From: Promethearchaeota archaeon
GTDB taxonomy: Archaea; Asgardarchaeota; Lokiarchaeia; Sigyniarchaeales; SOKP01
NCBI GenBank assembly: GCA_019058245.1
Contig: JAHPZJ010000015.1
Location: 1 to 64,000 of the forward strand
DNA: 64,000 nucleotides
Direction: 5' to 3'
Shown in pieces: positions 2,458-12,289 of the stretch (position 1 is its first letter; each line of letters begins with the position of its first letter). Under the pieces are notes generated by a model. That model had not been told where the DNA came from. It saw only the letters and a program-made list of their open reading frames with translations, and ran no database searches. The translations under genes and the position numbers were made by a program.

Positions 2458-3669
2458 ATGATGGAGAAACCAATATCATATACTCTAAAGATCAAATTAA
2501 AAGAAGATTACAATGAAATTTTACAGTATTTGTTAGATAGAGATTATATTATACAAAATCTTCCTTCTGATTTATCTGCCAAGAAAAATCATGGTGAAAC
2601 CTATACTTTAGCATATCCAATTCAAGGTATATTAAAATATCATGGAATCGCAAATGAAGAACACCGAATTTCTTATTTTCCAAGTATTTCTTTAAATAAT
2701 GATTGTTCATATACAATTACATATTTAAAATTTGATAAAAATTTAAAAGAAGATCTAGCTTTTATAAATGGAAAACCAACTTTTGGGGAAGTTCTTGAAA
2801 GAATTAAATTCTCTTTAAATAAAATTCGTAGATATTCTAAAATAAAGACTAAAGCAATTCTAATATCTCGAAACTTTCTGAATACCAGTAAAGAAGGTCC
2901 AATGGGTAAAGGACTTGGAACTTCAGCTTCAGGTTCATCTGCTTTAGCTTTAGCAGCTATATCTATCTTATACAATAATGATCCCCTTTTTTTAGAAAAC
3001 AAACGATTATTAAGTATTTATTCTCGATATTTGTCAGGTTCTGGTTGTCGTAGTGCTTCGGGAGGATTTGCTTTATGGTTGAGTTATCCTGACATTAATT
3101 CACTCGATAGTTTCGCGATTAGATTAGATAGAAAAGAACATCGTGATTTTATTAAGAGTATTTCCCTTATTACGATCCCAATACCATCTGATTTAAGAAC
3201 TATTCAAGTTCATAAAATTGCACCAAAATCTCCTTTTTTTACAGCATGGTTAGAACAAAGAAAAAAATTAGTATTTGAATTTTTTGAAGCGCTAGATAAA
3301 CACGATTTAAATAGAATAGGAGAATTAGCAGAATATGATACTATGTGTTTACATTCAGTTACAATGACAGCACAAAATAAAGATAATATAATTGCTTGGG
3401 AGCCTGATACAGTAAAAATCATGCAGAAGATCCAAGAATTACGAATGAAGGATTCCTATAATGTGTATTATTCAATTGATACCGGTCCATCTTTAGTTTT
3501 ATTAACTCTAGAAAACGAAAAAAAAGAAATAATTAATGAATTAAAATCCTTTATTCCAAAATATGATTTCATTGAGGGAAAAATAGGAGGATCTCCTATG
3601 ATAGTTAGCCCAAATTCATTAGAAGCAAAAAAATTAAAATCAGATTTAGAAAAGTTTAATAGTTTTTAG
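2458..3669 (+). CDS. Diphosphomevalonate-decarboxylase family GHMP enzyme
   Basis: GHMP-fold protein of 403 residues in the mevalonate diphosphate decarboxylase family. The phosphate loop is at 148-165 (GPMGKGLGTSASGSSALA). The family lysine is Lys60 (LKYHG), the arginine Arg198 (GCRSASGGFALW) and the catalytic aspartate Asp341 (SIDTGPS), so the residues needed for decarboxylation appear intact. The family also includes phosphomevalonate decarboxylase, mevalonate 3-kinase and bisphosphomevalonate decarboxylase, and the substrate cannot be fixed from sequence alone. It sits 16 bases before HMG-CoA reductase, so it is probably co-transcribed. Its presence beside a complete aconitase-X/UbiD branch is unexpected because both would serve the same decarboxylation stage. 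Confidence 0.8.
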   Translation: MMEKPISYTLKIKLKEDYNEILQYLLDRDYIIQNLPSDLSAKKNHGETYTLAYPIQGILKYHGIANEEHRISYFPSISLNNDCSYTITYLKFDKNLKEDLAFINGKPTFGEVLERIKFSLNKIRRYSKIKTKAILISRNFLNTSKEGPMGKGLGTSASGSSALALAAISILYNNDPLFLENKRLLSIYSRYLSGSGCRSASGGFALWLSYPDINSLDSFAIRLDRKEHRDFIKSISLITIPIPSDLRTIQVHKIAPKSPFFTAWLEQRKKLVFEFFEALDKHDLNRIGELAEYDTMCLHSVTMTAQNKDNIIAWEPDTVKIMQKIQELRMKDSYNVYYSIDTGPSLVLLTLENEKKEIINELKSFIPKYDFIEGKIGGSPMIVSPNSLEAKKLKSDLEKFNSF

Positions 3670-5047: not shown

Positions 5048-6358
5048 ATGAAAATTATGACATTTAGAGAATATATAAATCAGATTGAAAAGGAAGGAAA
5101 ACTCCGAAAGGTAGATATGGCAGTTTCTAAAAAATTAGAGATTTCTGGAATTTTGAAAGAAATTGAACCGACCCCAATATTATTTAATAATGTGAAAGAA
5201 TCAGATTTTCGAGTTGCTGGTAATGTCTTTTGTACAAAAGATGCAATTGCTACTTATTTTGGTATTAACCCTGCAGAAATTATACCGCTGCTTTCAAAAG
5301 CCATTAAAAATCATTCTGAACCAGAAGTAATTTCTAAGGCACCTTGTCAAGAGATTATCGAATCTAACATAGATTTAGATAAAATTCCTATATTATATCA
5401 TTGTGAAAGAGATGGAGGAAACTATATTAGTTCTGCGATAGTAGTCACAAGAGATCCAGACTATGGTCAAAATTTAGATTTTCACAGAGCAATGCAATTT
5501 TCAAAAAATAAATTCTCCGTTCGTGTAGTAAAGGGACGTCATTTTGATAAATTTTTAGAAAAAAATGGAGAATTAGACGTAGCTTTTTGTATAGGAAATA
5601 CGCCTAATATCTTAATCGCTGGAGCAACATCAGTAGAGATTGGTCTTAATGAATTACATATTGCCAATGCATTAGAACAAATTAAAGTAGTAAAAGCTAA
5701 TTCAGTCGATCTTTTAATACCTGCTGATGCAGAGTTTGTTCTAGAAGGGCGTATATATTTGGAGGATAAACATTCAGAGGGTCCTTTTGTTGATCTCACT
5801 GAAACATATGATACAATACGAGAAGAACCTATTTTTGAAGTAAAAAGAATTACTCATAGAAAGGATGCAATTTGGCAGGCGCTCCTCCCAGGTGCTCTTG
5901 AACATAAGATTTTGATGGGTATGCCTAGAGAACCTACTATTTTTAACAAAGTGAATGAACAGGGAGTTAAATGTTTGGATGTAAACATTAGTCCTGGTGG
6001 ATCTTCTTGGTTACATGCAATAGTACAAATTGATAAAAAATCAGAAGAAGATGGAAGAAAAGCAATAGAAGGAACCTTAGCTGGACATACAAGTTGTAAA
6101 CATGTTTTTATTGTAGATAAAGATATTAATATATATAATCCATTATCTGTTGAGTGGGCAATGGCAACTCGTTTTCAAGGAGATTCAAGAATGATTATTA
6201 AGGATAAGGAACCTGGGAGTAGTTTAGATCCTAGTGCTGAACCTGGAACAAAAATGACAACGAAAATTGGGTTTGATTTAACCAAACCACTTGTAGTCAA
6301 GGGAAAAAGTTTTGAAATTGCTGAATTTCCCAAAGTTGATATCAATAAATACTTTTAA
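5048..6358 (+). CDS. UbiD-family decarboxylase, probable anhydromevalonate phosphate decarboxylase
   Basis: A UbiD-family prenylated-FMN-dependent decarboxylase of 436 residues, with the family stretch EGPFVDLTETYD (near residue 240) and the downstream WQALLPGALEHKILMGMPRE block. In the modified archaeal mevalonate pathway this family converts trans-anhydromevalonate 5-phosphate to isopentenyl phosphate. The genomic context strongly supports that role: both subunits of phosphomevalonate dehydratase follow immediately, and UbiX, which makes the cofactor, is at 11741-12289. A second start, ATG at codon 4, is equally possible. General UbiD membership is secure; the exact substrate is inferred from context. 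Confidence 0.9.
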   Translation: MKIMTFREYINQIEKEGKLRKVDMAVSKKLEISGILKEIEPTPILFNNVKESDFRVAGNVFCTKDAIATYFGINPAEIIPLLSKAIKNHSEPEVISKAPCQEIIESNIDLDKIPILYHCERDGGNYISSAIVVTRDPDYGQNLDFHRAMQFSKNKFSVRVVKGRHFDKFLEKNGELDVAFCIGNTPNILIAGATSVEIGLNELHIANALEQIKVVKANSVDLLIPADAEFVLEGRIYLEDKHSEGPFVDLTETYDTIREEPIFEVKRITHRKDAIWQALLPGALEHKILMGMPREPTIFNKVNEQGVKCLDVNISPGGSSWLHAIVQIDKKSEEDGRKAIEGTLAGHTSCKHVFIVDKDINIYNPLSVEWAMATRFQGDSRMIIKDKEPGSSLDPSAEPGTKMTTKIGFDLTKPLVVKGKSFEIAEFPKVDINKYF

Positions 6359-6374
6359 GTGGAGGAAAGAAAAA

Positions 6375-7568
6375 ATGAAATTGACATTAGAAGAACAAGA
6401 TATGTTAGATGGTAAGTATGGAAATGCTACTCAGAAATCAGTGGAAATATTAATCACATTAGGAGATATATTTGATGCTGATGGTATGGTTGACGTGCAT
6501 GGAGTTCAAATAGCTGGAGTTTCATATGCTAATTTAGGAGAAGCTGGTTTGGAATTCTTAAGTGAAATGGCAGAGGATGGTAAAGTTAGAGTCTTAACAA
6601 CTTTGAATCCTGCAGGAATGGATCGAGAAAATTGGCAAGCTTTAGGGATTGATGAAGAATTTGCTAAAAATCAGAATCGAGCTATTGATGCCTTTGCAAA
6701 AATGGGTATAATTACTACTTGCTCTTGTACCCCTTATTTAATTGGGAATTCTCCACATTATGGGCAACATATTGCTTGGGCAGAAAGTAGTGCTGTTTGT
6801 TATGCTAATTCTGTTATTGGAGCTCGAACCAATCGTGAAGGAGGACCAAGTGCTTTAGCATCAGCTATTACTGGAAAAACACCAAAATATGGATATCACC
6901 TGGATGAGAATCGTCATGGGGAAGTTTTGGTAAAAGTAAATGCTGCAGTTAATGGTACAGATGAATTTGGAGTTTTGGGGAAAATAATTGGTGATAAATT
7001 GGTAGAATTAGGAAAGAAAATACCATATATTGAGGGTATACCTGAAGCAACAATTGAAGAACTCAAATCATTTTGTGCGTCTGTTGCAACATATGGCGGA
7101 ACAGCATTATTCCATATGGAGGGAATCACACCAGAATATAATAAATATCCTAAACCAGTTGATATTTCATTTGAAATTAGTCAAAGCGACCTTAATAAAA
7201 CTCGTTCTGAACTTATTGATGACGATCTTGAGATAGACTTTGTAAGTATAGGTTGCCCGCATGCTTCAATTTATGAGATTGAAAGAATTGCTAGTCTTTT
7301 AAAAGGAAAGAAAGTAAAGAAAGAATTTTGGATTACTACTGCCCGTCCCACAAAAAGAATCGCTGACGAAGCTGGATATTCAAAAATAATTGAGGAAGCA
7401 GGAGCGAAATTTGCAGCAGATACGTGTTGCGTCGTTGCTCCAATTAAGGGTCGTTTTAAAGGCATAATGGTAGACTCAGCGAAAGCATGTTATTATGGAC
7501 GCGCAAAAAATCAATTTAAAGTAAAAATTGGTCCAATTAAGGAATGTGTGGAGGAGGCTATAAAATGA
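6375..7568 (+). CDS. Phosphomevalonate dehydratase large subunit (aconitase X catalytic)
   Basis: Aconitase X large subunit, 398 residues. With the small subunit it dehydrates mevalonate 5-phosphate to trans-anhydromevalonate 5-phosphate. Cysteine motifs that could ligate the iron-sulfur cluster are visible (TTCSCTPYL, VSIGCPHASIYE and DTCCVVAP). The open frame extends to 6312, but the ATG at 6375 is chosen because a GGAGG ribosome site lies at 6361-6365 and the protein then starts MKLTLEEQDMLDG, as is typical for the family. The UbiD-family gene ends 16 bases upstream, and the small subunit overlaps the stop by four bases (ATGA), indicating translational coupling. Confidence 0.92.
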   Translation: MKLTLEEQDMLDGKYGNATQKSVEILITLGDIFDADGMVDVHGVQIAGVSYANLGEAGLEFLSEMAEDGKVRVLTTLNPAGMDRENWQALGIDEEFAKNQNRAIDAFAKMGIITTCSCTPYLIGNSPHYGQHIAWAESSAVCYANSVIGARTNREGGPSALASAITGKTPKYGYHLDENRHGEVLVKVNAAVNGTDEFGVLGKIIGDKLVELGKKIPYIEGIPEATIEELKSFCASVATYGGTALFHMEGITPEYNKYPKPVDISFEISQSDLNKTRSELIDDDLEIDFVSIGCPHASIYEIERIASLLKGKKVKKEFWITTARPTKRIADEAGYSKIIEEAGAKFAADTCCVVAPIKGRFKGIMVDSAKACYYGRAKNQFKVKIGPIKECVEEAIK

Positions 7569-7957
7569 AGTTAGAAGGTAGAAAAATTTATAAAGGTACT
7601 GCTGAAGCAGAAGCCATAGTCACTAAAGATGGAATCTCTTTCTATGGTGGTGTTGATCCTGATACGGGAAAAGTAGTTGAAGTTGGACATGAACTTGAAG
7701 GTCAATCAATAGCAGGAAAAGTGTTTGTTTTTCCTACTGGCAAAGGATCAACAGTAGGATCATATACTATGTATAGGATGAAGAAGAATAATCTGGCTCC
7801 AGCAGCAATTGTTAATAAACAAATTGATACTATCATAGCCGTAGGTTGTATTATCAGCGAGATTCCTTGTGTGGATCAAATTAATACTAATGAAATAAAG
7901 ACTGGACAAAGACTTATTGTTAATGGTACAGAAGGAACAATAGAAATAATAGACTAG
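7565..7957 (+). CDS. Phosphomevalonate dehydratase small subunit (aconitase X swivel)
   Basis: Small, swivelling-domain subunit of aconitase X, 130 residues. It carries the family motifs GGVDPDTGKVVEVGH and FPTGKGSTVGSYTMYRM, which form part of the substrate site at the interface with the large subunit. The start is placed at the ATG overlapping the large-subunit stop (ATGA), preceded by a GGAGGAGG ribosome site; a longer reading from 7544 has no support. Two separate subunits are normal for archaea. It partners the large subunit in the modified mevalonate pathway. Confidence 0.92.
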   Translation: MKLEGRKIYKGTAEAEAIVTKDGISFYGGVDPDTGKVVEVGHELEGQSIAGKVFVFPTGKGSTVGSYTMYRMKKNNLAPAAIVNKQIDTIIAVGCIISEIPCVDQINTNEIKTGQRLIVNGTEGTIEIID

Positions 7958-7973
7958 TCTAATTTTGATATTA

Positions 7974-8105
7974 ATGAAAGGTTCAGCAATAACTCATTCA
8001 AAGATAACGTTAATAAAATATTGGGGTCATTGGAATGAGGTATCCCCTGAACTAAATATACCTTTAAATGATAGTGTAAGTATAATGAAATATTGGTTTT
8101 CATAA
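7974..8105 (+). pseudogene. Remnant of mevalonate diphosphate decarboxylase N-terminus
   Basis: A 43-codon reading frame starts ATG at 7974 and reads MKGSAITHSKITLIKYWG, continuing with ELNIPLNDSVSIM. This is the N-terminal signature of classical mevalonate diphosphate decarboxylase (ALIKYWGK...LNLPLNDSISVT), including the active-site lysine of KYWG. The family match ends at SIM and a stop follows at 8103-8105; the remaining 300 or so residues are absent. No continuation is seen in other frames up to 8260. It is best read as the stump of a deleted gene. It is distinct from the intact family member at 2458-3669. Confidence 0.72.
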
Positions 8106-8260
8106 AATTCTCAATTAAAATTCTATATTACAATTGAATTTTTTTTACTTCTTCTCCAACTTTTTAAATAAAGTAAAAAATTATCAAAATAAGTTATAGA
8201 ATAAGAAACTTAAAAAATTTGAATATTTACAAATTTTATTATATTACACGAGTATAATTG

Positions 8261-9236
8261 GTGAAAAATTTGGGTATTGGAAAAGGATACGGAAAGACCA
8301 TACTTTTTGGCGAAATTTAATTCTTAATTAAAGATTAAACGCAATCATTTTGTAGTTTATGGTCTTCCTGCAATAGCATCAGCATTAGGATCTTTTACGA
8401 CTGCGGAAGTTAACATAGTTGAGGGTAATGATTGGGATGTTAATGATAAAAGATTAGCAACACCCAGTTATAAAAAACAAAAATACAATGAGGCAATGGA
8501 ATCAATTAAAAATGTTATTAACTTTTTAAAAATTGATACAGACAAGCAAAAACTTGAGATAACGTTTGCAGGTGATTTAATTGCCGCTAGTGGTGTGGGT
8601 GCTTCAGCAGCTCAATGTACATCACTTTCTCGTGCATTAAATGATACATTTAATCTTAATTTAAATGATGAGAGAATTAATGAAGCTGCTTATGAAGGAG
8701 AGAAAGCTTATCATGGTACACCCTCAGGAATTGACAATACAGCTTCAACTTATGGGGGATTAATTTGGTTTGTTAAAAACCTATCTGGCGGTAAAAATAC
8801 TATGGAACTATTGCAATCACCAAAGAAGATGCCTTTAGTAATTTTAAACACAGGAATAACAGCGTCAACAACAGAAGTTGTAGCTGATGTTAGACGATTA
8901 AAAGAGGAATCTCCAGAAAAATTTGAAAAGATTTTCAACCAATATGAAAATTTAATAATAGAGGCAAAAAAAGCTTTACTTGAGGGAAATATAGTCAAGA
9001 CGGGTGAATTAATGAATCAAAATCATAAATTATTACAAGATATATCAGTTTCTGGAGAAATTAACGAAAAATTAGTCAAAATTGCCCTTCAAAATGGTGC
9101 CATAGGTGCTAAAATGACTGGAACGGGAAGAGGAGGATTAGTAATTGCTTTGGCTGAAACTAATAAAATACAAGATAAAATTGCCAAGGCTGCTGAAAAA
9201 GAAGGATATGATGCCTGGAAAACCATGATAGGATGA
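8261..9236 (+). CDS. mvk: Mevalonate kinase, reading frame interrupted by 31 nt
   Basis: Phosphorylates mevalonate at the 5-hydroxyl. Exon-like segment 8261-8314 (GTG start, TTG at 8258 also possible) encodes VKNLGIGKGYGKTILFGE; segment 8346-9236 resumes in a different frame with HFVVYGLPAIASALGSFTT. Joined they give 314 residues, the normal family length, and restore the invariant GEHxVVYG motif. Downstream the GHMP phosphate loop AASGVGASAAQCTSLSRAL and the GTPSGIDNT motif are intact. The ATG at 8496 would give only 246 residues and lose the N-terminal active site. The interruption at 8315-8345 could be an intron, an inactivating insertion or an error. It lies just upstream of the IPK-isomerase fusion. 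Confidence 0.85.
8315..8345 (+). other. 31-nt interruption of mevalonate kinase, candidate bulge-helix-bulge intron
   Basis: These 31 bases separate GGC GAA (Gly-Glu) from CAT (His) of the GEH motif and shift the frame. RNA pairing is possible: GCG at 8310-8312 with CGC at 8340-8342, and TTTAAT at 8316-8321 with ATTAAA at 8334-8339. On the 5' side AAA (8313-8315) is a three-base bulge. If G8309-A8343 is counted as a mismatched fourth pair, the 3' bulge is ATC (8344-8346). Cutting after the second base of each bulge, the canonical archaeal geometry, removes exactly 8315-8345 and restores the frame. The outer helix is weak (U8308-A8347 only). The tRNA at 33820-33959 shows that the genome uses such introns. 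Confidence 0.55.
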
Positions 9237-9249
9237 GTGCGAGGAAAAA

Positions 9250-11142
9250 TTGAAAAACAACAATGAAATAATTCTGCTTAAATTAGGTGGAAGTTTATTA
9301 ACTGACAAGAATAGACCATTTTCCCTAAGGGAAGAAATTTTAGAAAAATGTGTTAATCAAATAATAGATAGTAAAAAATCAATTATATTAATTCACGGTG
9401 GTGGTTCATTTGGTCATCCTCTTGCTAAAAAATATAAAATATCTCAAGGTTTGAATAATTCTATTGAAGATCAAATCATAGGACTTTCAAAGACGCATGA
9501 TGCTATGAATCAATTGAATTCTATTATCATAAAAAAATTTCTTGAAAAAGAATGTCCCGCAATTTCAATTCAACCTTCAAGTATTTTTATACAAGATTTT
9601 AATGAAATTAGTATTAAATCAATAGAACCTATTGAAAAATTACTTGATCTTGGAGTAATACCAGTCCTTTATGGAGATATTCTTCTCAGTAAAGATTACT
9701 CTTTTTCAATTCTATCTGGAGATTACATTATTTTAAAATTATGCGAGAATATTAAAAATTTTAAGATCTCAAAAGTAATATTTGCAATTGAAGAAGATGG
9801 TATCTTTATTGATGAGAATAGTAATAAAAAATTAGCTTCGAAATTAACACTTAACGATTTATCTACGATAAAATTAGCGAAATTAGATCAAAAAATAGAT
9901 GTTACTGGAGGAATAAAAGGAAAATTAAAAGAAATTGAAAAAATCTTAAAATTAAATATACCTGTTCAAATTATTAACGGTATTAAAAATAAAAATATAT
10001 TCAAAGCTTTAACGAACCAATATATAGAATGTACTAATATTGAAATACCATTAAATAAATCAGATGAAAGTCAAATATACAATAGAAAAATTGAACATAT
10101 TAAGATACCTTTAGAACACAACGTTCAACACACAATTAACTATTTTGATGATATTACGCTGATTCATCATCCACTTCCAGAAATAGAATTAGAGGAAACT
10201 AATATTTCTGTTGAATTCTTTAAAAAACATATATCTGCTCCAATTTGTATTTCAGCAATCACAGGGGGTCACCAAGTATCTAAAGCTATCAATAATATTT
10301 TAGCAAATGCTGCAAAATCGGAAAACATCATACTAGGGATTGGGAGTCAGAGAATAGGTTTAGAAGATCCCTCTACAATTGAATCTTTCAGTATAGTTCG
10401 AGATGTAGCACCAAAAATTCCTATCATAGGGAATTTAGGTATTGGACAGGTATGTGATCCCAATTTTGATATTGATAATTTCAAAAAATGCATTGATATG
10501 ATTAAAGCAGATGTTATGGCTATACACTTTAATGCTTTACATGAACTTGTTCAAAAAGAGGGTAGCATTTCCTATAATAACTTTGAAGAAAGATTTAAAG
10601 AAATAAGAAAAAAACTGAATATACCAATTATTGCTAAAGAAGTTGGGTCAGGATTTAATAAAGAATTAGCTTTAAAGCTTGATTTATTAGGTTTTGATGG
10701 GTTTGATGTTGGTGGAGCAGGTGGTACTAGTTTTGCCGCAATTGAGTCATTACGTGATGACTATAGTAATGAAGTATATACGCGAAAAATTGCGGATACA
10801 TTCAGGGAATGGGGAATCCCAACACCAATTGCAATAATCTATGTAAGACAAGCTACCGAAAAACCCATAATAGCTACAGGGGGATTGCGGTCTGGAGTTG
10901 ATATTGCCAAATCTATCGTTTTAGGGGCGGATATTGGAGGTTTTGCGTTCAAATTCTTAAAATCGGCTTGGCAGGATTATAAAAGTAATTCCATGAATAA
11001 CACGATCAAGGAAATTAAAACTCTAAAGCATGAATTAAGATCTTCGATGTGGTTGATGAATATAGAAAATATTAACAAGCTTAAATGTAATAGTGAGAAA
11101 AGAATCTTAGTTGGGAAATTATATCAATGGCTAAATCAATAA
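9250..11142 (+). CDS. Isopentenyl phosphate kinase fused to type 2 IPP isomerase
   Basis: A 630-residue two-enzyme fusion. Residues 1 to about 264 are isopentenyl phosphate kinase, an amino-acid-kinase fold with LLKLGGSLLTDK (9-20) and IHGGGSFGH (48-56) carrying the active-site histidine; it makes isopentenyl diphosphate. After a short linker, residues 277-630 are the FMN-dependent type 2 isopentenyl-diphosphate isomerase, with RKIEHIKIPLEHNVQ, AITGGH (336-341), the glycine-rich DVGGAGG and the C-terminal ATGGLRSG. Both domains look full length. The start is TTG at 9250, with GAGG five bases before it. It follows mevalonate kinase by 13 bases. Confidence 0.92.
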   Translation: MKNNNEIILLKLGGSLLTDKNRPFSLREEILEKCVNQIIDSKKSIILIHGGGSFGHPLAKKYKISQGLNNSIEDQIIGLSKTHDAMNQLNSIIIKKFLEKECPAISIQPSSIFIQDFNEISIKSIEPIEKLLDLGVIPVLYGDILLSKDYSFSILSGDYIILKLCENIKNFKISKVIFAIEEDGIFIDENSNKKLASKLTLNDLSTIKLAKLDQKIDVTGGIKGKLKEIEKILKLNIPVQIINGIKNKNIFKALTNQYIECTNIEIPLNKSDESQIYNRKIEHIKIPLEHNVQHTINYFDDITLIHHPLPEIELEETNISVEFFKKHISAPICISAITGGHQVSKAINNILANAAKSENIILGIGSQRIGLEDPSTIESFSIVRDVAPKIPIIGNLGIGQVCDPNFDIDNFKKCIDMIKADVMAIHFNALHELVQKEGSISYNNFEERFKEIRKKLNIPIIAKEVGSGFNKELALKLDLLGFDGFDVGGAGGTSFAAIESLRDDYSNEVYTRKIADTFREWGIPTPIAIIYVRQATEKPIIATGGLRSGVDIAKSIVLGADIGGFAFKFLKSAWQDYKSNSMNNTIKEIKTLKHELRSSMWLMNIENINKLKCNSEKRILVGKLYQWLNQ

Positions 11143-11175
11143 ATCTTAAATGTTAAATTTCTACTATGAATAATA

Positions 11176-11571
11176 TTACTTAGAATCTGATGGTTTTTCT
11201 TCTAAAAAATCTTCAATCTCATTTATGAAATCAGAAAAACTACCAATTTTCCTTGTAATGTTTTTTAGTTTTTCACCATAAAGTTTAATGAATTTATCAG
11301 AGAGTTTTTTTAATTCTTTATTTACTTTTTTCTGTTTGAATTTTTTAGAAGAATTTGCTATAAATATCAACTCGTATTGCTTTATAATGGTGAATCTAGA
11401 ATTTTCTAATTCGAAATTTGACATACCGCCTTCAGCTAATTGTTCAGAAAACATGTTTAAAGCGCTCATCATTGCTCCAAAAAGTTGAGGAGATACCGCC
11501 TTATCAAATTCTCTATGAAAAATTGCAATTCCTGATTGCTCAAGAATCCAAATATCCTGAAATATTTTCAT
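11176..11571 (-). CDS. Small longin/Roadblock-like protein
   Basis: About 131 residues. The N-terminal 80 residues (IWILEQSGIAIFHREFD, then a helix with ALNMFSEQLA, then FTIIKQYELIFIANSS) have the alternating strand-helix-strand pattern of profilin-like longin or Roadblock domains, which in Asgard archaea often attach to small GTPases. A charged, lysine-rich helical tail follows. The start at 11571 is preferred over the ATG at 11592 because GAGG lies seven bases before it. The gene faces the isoprenoid cluster convergently. The assignment is by pattern, not by a firm family match. Confidence 0.7.
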   Translation of the reverse strand: MKIFQDIWILEQSGIAIFHREFDKAVSPQLFGAMMSALNMFSEQLAEGGMSNFELENSRFTIIKQYELIFIANSSKKFKQKKVNKELKKLSDKFIKLYGEKLKNITRKIGSFSDFINEIEDFLEEKPSDSK

Positions 11572-11740
11572 TTGAATTCCTCTTTCTCTCACTTTTATGC
11601 AAATTTTTCTAAATTTTAATAAACCGCTTCTATAAAAAATTATAGATCTTTTTATTTATTTTATGAAATAAATTTATTCTTTTTTAGATTTATAGTTTTT
11701 AATTCGTTATTTTTTGTTCTAATAATTTAATTAAAAGAGA

Positions 11741-12289
11741 TCATGAATTGCCCCATCTTTTAATATTGCTCTCAATACCTATCTGATCCAAAATTCTCCC
11801 TATTGTAAACTCAGTAAGTTCTTCTAAATTTTTAGGTTTAATATAATAAGAAGGAATAGGTGGAAAAATTATAACACCCAGTTTTGCTAATTTGAGCATA
11901 TTTTCCAAATGAATTACGCTAAAAGGAGTTTCACGTACTATAAGTATAAGTTTTCTCTGCTCTTTTATCATTACATCAGCAGCTCTTGTAATGAGATTAT
12001 TTGCATAACCATTTGCGATAGCAGAAAGAGTTTTCATTGAACAGGGAATTATTATCATGGAATCAAGTTTATAGGATCCACTCGCGGGAGGTGCTAATAG
12101 ATCATGTACTTCATAATTTTTATCAGCCAGTTTACGTACTTCTGATATATTATGATTAGTCTCAATTGAAACAATCTTTTCAGCATTTTTTGAAATAATT
12201 AATTCCGTTTTAATACCTTTCTTTTTAAGTATTTCAAGAAACCTAATTGCTAAATGAATTCCAGAGGTGCCAGTAACTGCAACTAACAT
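11741..12289 (-). CDS. ubiX: Flavin prenyltransferase UbiX
   Basis: Transfers a dimethylallyl group to FMN, making the prenylated FMN needed by UbiD-type decarboxylases. The 182-residue flavoprotein shows the N-terminal MLVAVTGTSG nucleotide loop, the IIIPCSMKTLSAIANGYANNLITRAADV block, and the RETPFSVIHLENMLKLAKLGVIIFPPIPSYY block typical of UbiX. Placing it beside an anhydromevalonate phosphate decarboxylase candidate (5048-6358) makes the cofactor supply local. It also uses dimethylallyl phosphate, a neighbour metabolite of the kinase-isomerase fusion. It is transcribed on the opposite strand to the main cluster. Confidence 0.95.
   Translation of the reverse strand: MLVAVTGTSGIHLAIRFLEILKKKGIKTELIISKNAEKIVSIETNHNISEVRKLADKNYEVHDLLAPPASGSYKLDSMIIIPCSMKTLSAIANGYANNLITRAADVMIKEQRKLILIVRETPFSVIHLENMLKLAKLGVIIFPPIPSYYIKPKNLEELTEFTIGRILDQIGIESNIKRWGNS

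What the first reader, a model, noticed from the sequence alone, without database searches (positions are those of the whole stretch)
8261..8400. Mevalonate kinase split between Glu and His of GEH by 31 nt with bulge-helix-bulge geometry
Seen: removing 8315-8345 joins GGC GAA to CAT and restores LFGEHFVVYG and the full 314-residue length. The insert and its flanks can form two three-base bulges (8313-8315 and 8344-8346) separated by a short helix, and the canonical cut positions give exactly this in-frame junction. Known: archaeal splicing endonuclease cuts such motifs, mostly in tRNA and rarely in mRNA (for example cbf5). Weak point: one G-A mismatch in the central helix and a poor outer helix. 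If real, it is an mRNA intron in a core lipid gene.
Basis: partly seen in the sequence, partly recalled or inferred. Interest (0 to 1): 0.9.

Follow-up and report, generated by a model that had tools for sequence, protein, structure and literature searches.

The report
Conserved mRNA intron in Lokiarchaeal lipid gene
In 25 Lokiarchaeota-type genomes the mevalonate kinase gene, needed to make membrane lipids, is interrupted at one and the same point by a short insert (31 bases in 24, 28 in one) that is predicted to be spliced out of the messenger RNA by the tRNA-intron enzymes, something apparently described in archaea for only one other protein gene.

Summary
The 31-nt insert at 8315-8345 is not a fault of this genome. 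Among 79 genomes of the order a covariance model finds the site in 44: 25 carry the insert at exactly the GE|H junction (31 nt in 24, 28 nt in one) and 19 are uninterrupted. The 25 belong to one family; 20 match named Candidatus Lokiarchaeota/Lokiarchaeia records. The relaxed bulge-helix-bulge motif covaries (7 pairs with compensatory change, 0 of 500 shuffles), and exon codons that form it are pinned only where the insert is present (GGC 24/25 versus 2/22). The genome has two splicing-endonuclease genes, RtcB and many tRNA introns. A ribosomal hop finds no matching codons in any of 25; in 8 of 25, the window among them, no alternative start could give the enzyme. Best explanation: a pre-mRNA intron removed by the splicing endonuclease, probably with RtcB; a second protein-coding gene after cbf5, and the first I found in Asgard archaea. 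One gain with about ten exact losses, or exchange, fits the gene tree. No RNA evidence was available.

The parts
8260..8264 (+). Shine-Dalgarno-like GGTGA before the likely TTG start
   Evidence: sequence; role inferred
8270..8314 (+). Exon 1 of mevalonate kinase (15 codons, MGIGKGYGKTILFGE), likely TTG start
   Evidence: spliced protein colinear with solved mevalonate kinase 2hfs across the junction
8315..8345 (+). 31-nt intron (insert)
   Evidence: same site in 25 of 79 genomes of the order; lengths
8346..9236 (+). Exon 2 of mevalonate kinase (296 codons plus stop)
   Evidence: 296 codons in 24 of 24 intron-bearing species whose exon 2 is complete
8309..8312 (+). Central helix of the BHB, 5' strand (exon 1, GGCG)
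8340..8343 (+). Central helix of the BHB, 3' strand (intron, CGCA); G8309.A8343 mismatched here
   Evidence: compensatory GGTG/CACT in L012
8313..8315 (+). 5' bulge AA|A, predicted cut 8314/8315
   Evidence: cut position inferred from the rule given for cbf5
8344..8346 (+). 3' bulge AT|C, predicted cut 8345/8346
   Evidence: inferred cut
8316..8339 (+). Inner hairpin of the intron
   Evidence: 86.9% of cells paired, 5 of 8 pairs with change on both sides
8291..8302 (+). Distal exon-exon helix, exon 1 strand
   Evidence: 92.4% paired in 25 intron-bearing genes, 69% in 22 uninterrupted ones
8358..8368 (+). Distal exon-exon helix, exon 2 strand

Best explanation
A conserved insert (31 nt in 24 species, 28 nt in one) splits the mevalonate kinase gene between the Glu and His codons of GEH in 25 Lokiarchaeota-type genomes, and it is most likely a pre-mRNA intron that would be cut out by the tRNA-splicing endonuclease at a relaxed bulge-helix-bulge motif and the exons rejoined, probably by RtcB. 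Shown by sequence: exact site, near-constant length, covarying structure, pinned exon codons, uninterrupted sister genes, and genes for two endonuclease subunits and RtcB. Inferred: cleavage after the second base of each bulge, ligation, and translation of the spliced 311-aa enzyme. Also inferred: the intron entered the mevalonate kinase gene once, near the ancestor of this family, and was then lost exactly about ten times, or was passed around by gene exchange.
For: Conserved site: 25 interrupted and 19 uninterrupted genes among 79 genomes of the order. In 227 genomes of the phylum the same 25 interrupted genes are found, all in the window's family (code f1), and 38 matches have the uninterrupted length. 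Covariation: 25 sequences, 88.9% of cells paired, 7 pairs with a change on both sides, 0 of 500 shuffles as high; slid controls 40-49% paired. On the first 15 sequences, before the model was built: 91.0%, 5 such pairs, 1 of 500. Pinned codons: at 12 residue-invariant codons within 9 codons of the junction, codon identity is 0.75 with the intron (24 genes) and 0.46 without (22); at 80 distant ones 0.52 and 0.50; none of 20,000 permutations as extreme. Gly codon GGC, part of the central helix: 24/25 with, 2/22 without. Reading: every intron has a stop in the frame of exon 1 (25/25) while exon 2 stays open; no landing codon equals the take-off codon (0/25). Machinery: two PF01974 genes in the own genome. 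One aligns over most of its length with chain 3p1z_B; the other lacks the His of 1a79. RtcB in the own genome and in 20 of 21 searched. In the own genome 11 of 17 tRNA matches are 101-138 nt long. Phylogeny: introns on the deepest branches of the 47-row clade; one clade rejected, p-AU 3.9e-7; a single gain implies 10 losses.
Against: No transcript, cDNA or peptide was seen. Among the 120 listed database proteins, no full-length one came above 93% identity to the exon 2 of an intron-bearing species as its best match. With the three core central pairs and open bulges enforced, the fold equals the minimum-energy fold in only 2 of 24 sequences; it lies a median 1.65 and at most 3.4 kcal/mol above it, and the core helix has a median probability of 0.32. 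The fourth central pair is non-standard in 17 of 25, and 6 of 11 outer pairs never vary and so say nothing. Part of the outer pairing comes from coding: uninterrupted genes still pair at 69%, and the longest unbroken run overlaps (6-10 with, 5-10 without the intron). In 17 of 25 the exon 2 frame is open upstream through the insert and holds a start codon (ATG in 13), so a protein with another N-terminus cannot be excluded there. Only this one site was found in the own genome, though only 150 of 4738 candidates were scored. I named the structure after seeing 15 of the sequences, the larger alignment was fitted to it, and the species are related, so the shuffle counts are not probabilities. One two-subunit archaeal enzyme, that of M. 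kandleri, has constrained specificity (PMC6379350); the specificity of this one is untested.
Confidence: 0.9

Rival explanations
1. The insert stays in the mRNA: exon 1 is a leader peptide and the hairpin a regulatory element, and the enzyme is translated from an alternative start in the frame of exon 2.
For: In 17 of 25 species the exon 2 frame is open upstream through the insert and holds a start codon. Databases list such proteins, e.g. P0010 and P0117, which match exon 2 of L005 and L012 at 100%.
Against: In 8 of 25, the window included, the exon 2 frame has a stop inside the insert and no start after it before His; the first ATG/GTG/TTG inside exon 2 then lies 13 to 161 codons in. Exon 1 encodes the same G(Y/F)GKTILFGE stretch in 25 of 25 as in uninterrupted Lokiarchaeal sisters, and the spliced protein aligns with a solved kinase through GEH. 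The cut geometry gives the exact frame.
Confidence: 0.05
2. Programmed ribosomal hop or frameshift over an unspliced insert.
For: Small near-constant size, a hairpin, and a stop soon after the junction resemble translational bypass elements (recalled).
Against: Take-off and landing codons never match (0 of 25); for 7 of 25 no single shift can pass both stops. The exon 1 bases of the 5' bulge and the outer bases of the central helix are among the invariant columns, as a splice motif would need.
Confidence: 0.02
3. Assembly error, or a dead pseudogene in this one genome.
For: The genome is a draft assembly (76% complete, 31 contigs), and a neighbouring decarboxylase gene at 7974-8138 is truly decayed.
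Against: Same insert in 25 species (20 matched to named records), including the record CP070831.1 labelled chromosome. Exon 2 is open over 296 codons in all 24 complete cases.
Confidence: 0.01
4. It is an intron, but its patchy spread reflects several gains or transfer between species rather than one gain and many losses.
For: Intron-bearing rows are not one clade (p-AU 3.9e-7); ten gains (10 changes) are one change fewer than one gain and ten losses (11); uninterrupted copies of the gene sit in records labelled Bathyarchaeota.
Against: All 25 introns match one model, 10 of them not used to build it, so they share one origin; the deepest branches of the clade carry the intron.
Confidence: 0.3

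Closest known systems
cbf5 pre-mRNA intron of Desulfurococcales and Sulfolobales (PMC2738675; abstract and Results part 1 of 2 read)
   [quoted passage not shown] unconventional BHB; predicted cuts between second and third bulge bases; hetero-oligomeric splicing endonuclease; old insertion with lineage-specific losses.
   Different: Other gene and other phylum; here only 28-31 nt; spliced cDNA was reported there and not tested here; probably at least two losses there against about ten here if gained once; a distal exon-exon helix with pinned codons here. cbf5 itself is read in one frame without stops in 17 near-full-length matches (and one cut by a contig end) from 19 genomes here.
Archaeal tRNA introns (BHB and relaxed HBh' motifs; review PMC6379350, passages read)
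   Same: Same motif and, by inference, the same enzymes; 11 of 17 tRNA matches in the own genome are 101-138 nt long and ARAGORN's intron mode gives introns of 8-41 nt.
   Different: Host RNA is an mRNA; no tRNA body to position the endonuclease.
HVO_1309 5' UTR cleavage by EndA in Haloferax (PMC7714728, passages read)
   Same: An mRNA as substrate of the splicing endonuclease.
   Different: There the sites lie in an untranslated leader; here the insert splits the reading frame.

Membership tests
Archaeal BHB pre-mRNA intron | Insert interrupts a conserved reading frame and exact removal restores it | tested here: met
Archaeal BHB pre-mRNA intron | Two 3-nt bulges with a central helix, cuts after bulge base 2 giving the exon join | tested here: met
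   geometry; fourth central pair standard in only 8 of 25; cutting itself not tested
Archaeal BHB pre-mRNA intron | Structure conserved by compensatory changes | tested here: met
Archaeal BHB pre-mRNA intron | Uninterrupted orthologues at the same site | tested here: met
Archaeal BHB pre-mRNA intron | Hetero-oligomeric splicing endonuclease in the genome | tested here: met
   two PF01974 genes in the own genome (22 of 26 genomes searched have two, 4 have one), one with Tyr/His/Lys, one without His; catalytic residues recalled, assembly and breadth of specificity inferred
Archaeal BHB pre-mRNA intron | Spliced mRNA observed | not testable with these tools
   no RNA data held; no spliced-like protein among the 120 listed
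Canonical strict hBHBh' motif | Outer helix directly adjoining the bulges | tested here: not met
   weak next to the bulges by reading A1; exon-exon pairing from 8302/8358 outward, so relaxed type
Translational bypass element | Matching take-off and landing codons | tested here: not met
   0 of 25
Group I or II intron, intein | Catalytic RNA core or open in-frame insert | tested here: not met
   28-31 nt only; a stop in frame in 25 of 25; no Rfam match at gathering score in the window

The most novel reading that the evidence does not exclude
Lokiarchaea, kin of the archaeal ancestor of eukaryotes, carry an old, compact, inherited mRNA intron in a core lipid gene. It is spliced by the tRNA enzymes, it constrains the codons of both exons into a splicing scaffold, and it has been erased exactly about ten times, as if spliced mRNA had been copied back into the genome.
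Probability: 0.4. Interest if true: 0.92.

Novelty: new member of a known kind. Interest (0 to 1): 0.82.

Why it matters
A 2020 paper names cbf5 as the one further BHB intron reported in archaea, in an mRNA (PMC7714728, passages read). Ten searches of the open library, judged by listed titles and abstract beginnings and a few passages, showed no report of one in mevalonate kinase or in an Asgard mRNA; preprints and most subscription journals are not held. This case adds a second gene, in a lineage central to the origin of eukaryotes, with 25 species, covariation and many with/without comparisons, so gain, loss and mechanism of mRNA introns in archaea become testable. It also shows that automatic annotation truncates such genes: P0010 and P0117 lack the conserved N-terminus.

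Tried and rejected
Paralogous introns: the model found no second site in the own genome at E up to 10 (150 of 4738 candidates scored) and one site per matching genome in 79 and 227 genomes (stricter filters, 53 and 18 candidates scored per genome). It is trained on this intron and would miss unrelated ones, so other mRNA introns remain possible. Rfam: no match at gathering score in the window. cbf5: no interruption in 17 near-full-length matches; one further match is cut by a contig end and one genome of 19 gave only a weak partial match. Spliced product in protein databases: none among 120 listed rows. ARAGORN without intron mode found no tRNA in the window. I considered assembly error, pseudogene, bypass, frameshift, leader peptide, group I/II intron and intein; reasons are given above. 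My first automatic labels wrongly flagged L013, L023 and L031 as interrupted because of a narrow pattern; reading the sequences corrected this, and measures the insert directly. Its pattern left 23 rows without a label; labels 22 of these as uninterrupted and drops the other, L107.

Rows dropped: L107 (truncated at the contig end) and L158 (no hit); L159 and L160 (paralogues without the site) from all counts; L056 and L130 (incomplete exon 2), L159 and L160 from the tree of 71 rows. The codon test used 24 intron-bearing genes (L056 left out) and 22 uninterrupted ones with a 296-codon exon 2 (20 Lokiarchaeal, 2 Bathyarchaeotal: L089, L096); L105 and other genes of different length, and L112, were left out. 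The fold test left out the 28-nt case.

Full report
WHAT WAS CHECKED. The window lies in a 3.09 Mb draft archaeal genome (G000, 31 contigs, 76% complete). At 8270-9236 a mevalonate kinase gene is interrupted by 31 nt at 8315-8345. Removing exactly these bases, and none of the shifted sets of 31 tried, joins GGC GAA to CAT. The spliced protein aligns without a gap through GYGK.ILFGEHFVV with the solved mevalonate kinase 2hfs (E 2.6e-73). That GEH belongs to the catalytic motif of these kinases is recalled, not tested.

IT IS CONSERVED. A protein search of 58 related genomes matched 57, and the best 30 places became loci. Reading the DNA before the His codon showed the same insert in many of them. 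A covariance model built from 15 found the site in 44 of 79 genomes of the order: 24 matches of 94 nt, one of 91 nt, and 19 of 63 nt, the uninterrupted length. The 25 interrupted genes fall in one family and five genera: g1 9, g2 11, g4 2, g5 2, g7 1 (counted). In 227 genomes of the phylum the same 25 were found and 38 matches had the uninterrupted length; I read 13 of these 38. The insert is 31 nt in 24 species and 28 nt in one. Twenty of the 25 match records named Candidatus Lokiarchaeota or Lokiarchaeia, including CP070831.1, labelled chromosome. Exon 2 is exactly 296 codons in all 24 complete cases.

IT FOLDS AS A RELAXED BHB, AND THE FOLD LOOKS SELECTED. With alignment column c equal to window position 8284+c, the central helix pairs exon 1 8309-8312 with intron 8340-8343, bulges are 8313-8315 and 8344-8346, the intron forms an inner hairpin, and exon 1 8291-8302 pairs with exon 2 8358-8368. 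On the first 15 sequences 91.0% of cells pair and 5 pairs show changes on both sides. On 25 it is 88.9% and 7, reached by 0 of 500 shuffles; slid partners give 40-49%. One telling case is L012, where GGCG/CGC becomes GGTG/CAC. The second alignment was fitted to the model, I chose the structure after seeing the first set, and the species are related, so I rest more on the codon test. At 12 residue-invariant degenerate codons within 9 codons of the junction, codon identity is 0.75 in 24 interrupted and 0.46 in 22 uninterrupted genes; at 80 distant ones it is 0.52 and 0.50 (0 of 20,000 permutations as extreme). The Gly codon of the central helix is GGC in 24 of 25 interrupted and 2 of 22 uninterrupted genes. 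The exon-exon helix is 92% paired against 69%, though the longest unbroken run overlaps between the two groups (6-10 and 5-10), so part of it comes from coding. Shuffled inserts reach the core geometry in 3.2% of trials against 23 of 25. Against this, the enforced BHB core equals the minimum-energy fold in only 2 of 24 sequences (median 1.65 kcal/mol above).

HOW IT LIKELY WORKS. The endonuclease would cut after the second base of each bulge, the rule stated for cbf5, and RtcB would join the exons. Own-genome proteins fit: two PF01974 genes. One aligns with chain 3p1z_B (Aeropyrum pernix, recalled) and keeps the Tyr, His and Lys expected of the catalytic subunit (residue roles recalled); in the other the His is replaced. 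That makes a hetero-oligomeric enzyme likely. A review says that this kind and the epsilon-2 kind handle relaxed motifs efficiently, but also that the two-subunit M. kandleri enzyme is constrained (PMC6379350, passages); whether this enzyme has the specificity loop was not examined. RtcB is in 20 of 21 genomes, the own one included. Eleven of 17 tRNA matches in the own genome are 101-138 nt long, and ARAGORN's intron mode placed an intron in 10 of the 11. Three other Asgard genomes have introns in 92-95% of tRNA genes (PMC11291895, passages). That the spliced protein is the working enzyme is inferred.

WHY NOT SOMETHING ELSE. Reading straight on from exon 1 meets a stop inside the insert in 25 of 25. 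In 8 of 25, the window included, the exon 2 frame also has a stop inside the insert and no start codon between it and His; the next start inside exon 2 is 13 to 161 codons in. In 7 of these 8 no single frameshift can pass. Landing and take-off codons never match (all). In the other 17 species an alternative N-terminus is possible on paper (an ATG in 13), and databases list such proteins (P0010, P0117). Exon 1 still encodes G(Y/F)GKTILFGE in 25 of 25, so I read these as annotation errors.

HISTORY. In a tree of 71 rows the intron-bearing genes are scattered over a 47-row clade, including its deepest branches. A single clade is rejected (p-AU 3.9e-7). The fewest changes are 10 (7 forced by starred branches), as ten gains; a single gain implies 10 losses, 11 changes. 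All 25 introns match one model, 10 of them not used to build it, which favours one origin; losses and exchange between species cannot be told apart here. The uninterrupted sites are exact, as copying of spliced RNA would leave them; this is inference. Three genes from records labelled Bathyarchaeota nest inside the clade and are uninterrupted.

NOVELTY. The closest known case is the cbf5 intron (PMC2738675; abstract and Results part 1 read). A 2020 paper calls it the one additional BHB intron reported in archaea, and itself adds one 5' UTR substrate (PMC7714728, passages). Ten library searches showed no mevalonate kinase or Asgard mRNA intron in what was listed (one search listed 20 of 40 papers); preprints and most subscription journals are not held. 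Cbf5 itself is uninterrupted in 17 near-full-length matches, one more being cut by a contig end, from 19 genomes. A paper on archaeal mevalonate pathways including Lokiarchaeia (PMC11052028, 12 passages) showed no mention of a split gene in the passages seen.

LIMITS. No RNA data. One gene only. Relatedness inflates counts.

Noticed in passing
window 7974-8138: Stump of a phosphomevalonate-decarboxylase-like gene (stop after 43 residues) next to the mevalonate kinase; relatives L101, L070, L081 and L108 have a full 336-aa ORF at this place. Name recalled from the IxLIKYWG motif, with PMC11052028 (passages) reporting such decarboxylases in Lokiarchaeia.
   Followed up: partly
window 2713-3549 (ORF 2458-3669): A second ORF, 28% identical to residues 50-312 of that decarboxylase, so the genome may keep a distant homologue.
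   Followed up: no
L089, L096, L105: Mevalonate kinases in records labelled Bathyarchaeota, nested in the Lokiarchaeal clade: gene transfer or misbinning; all uninterrupted.
   Followed up: partly
L137-L147 (own genome tRNA matches): Eleven of 17 tRNA matches look intron-bearing, some apparently outside the anticodon loop (for example L147); ARAGORN in standard mode misses most of them.
   Followed up: partly
L022/L065/L097 (G031): Uninterrupted gene that still has several intron-type exon codons (ACC, CTT, TTT, GGT, CTT), perhaps a recent exact loss.
   Followed up: no
L019/L049/L092 (G024): No ATG/GTG/TTG where the start is expected; ACG stands there.
   Followed up: no
G007 and G013 (same genus, 97-98% complete): No close orthologue of this mevalonate kinase; best matches are distant.
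   Followed up: no
window 5048-12289: Mevalonate-pathway cluster: UbiD-like, aconitase-X-like large and small subunits, mevalonate kinase, isopentenyl phosphate kinase fused to a type-2 isomerase-like domain, UbiX-like (names by recall from the translations).
   Followed up: no
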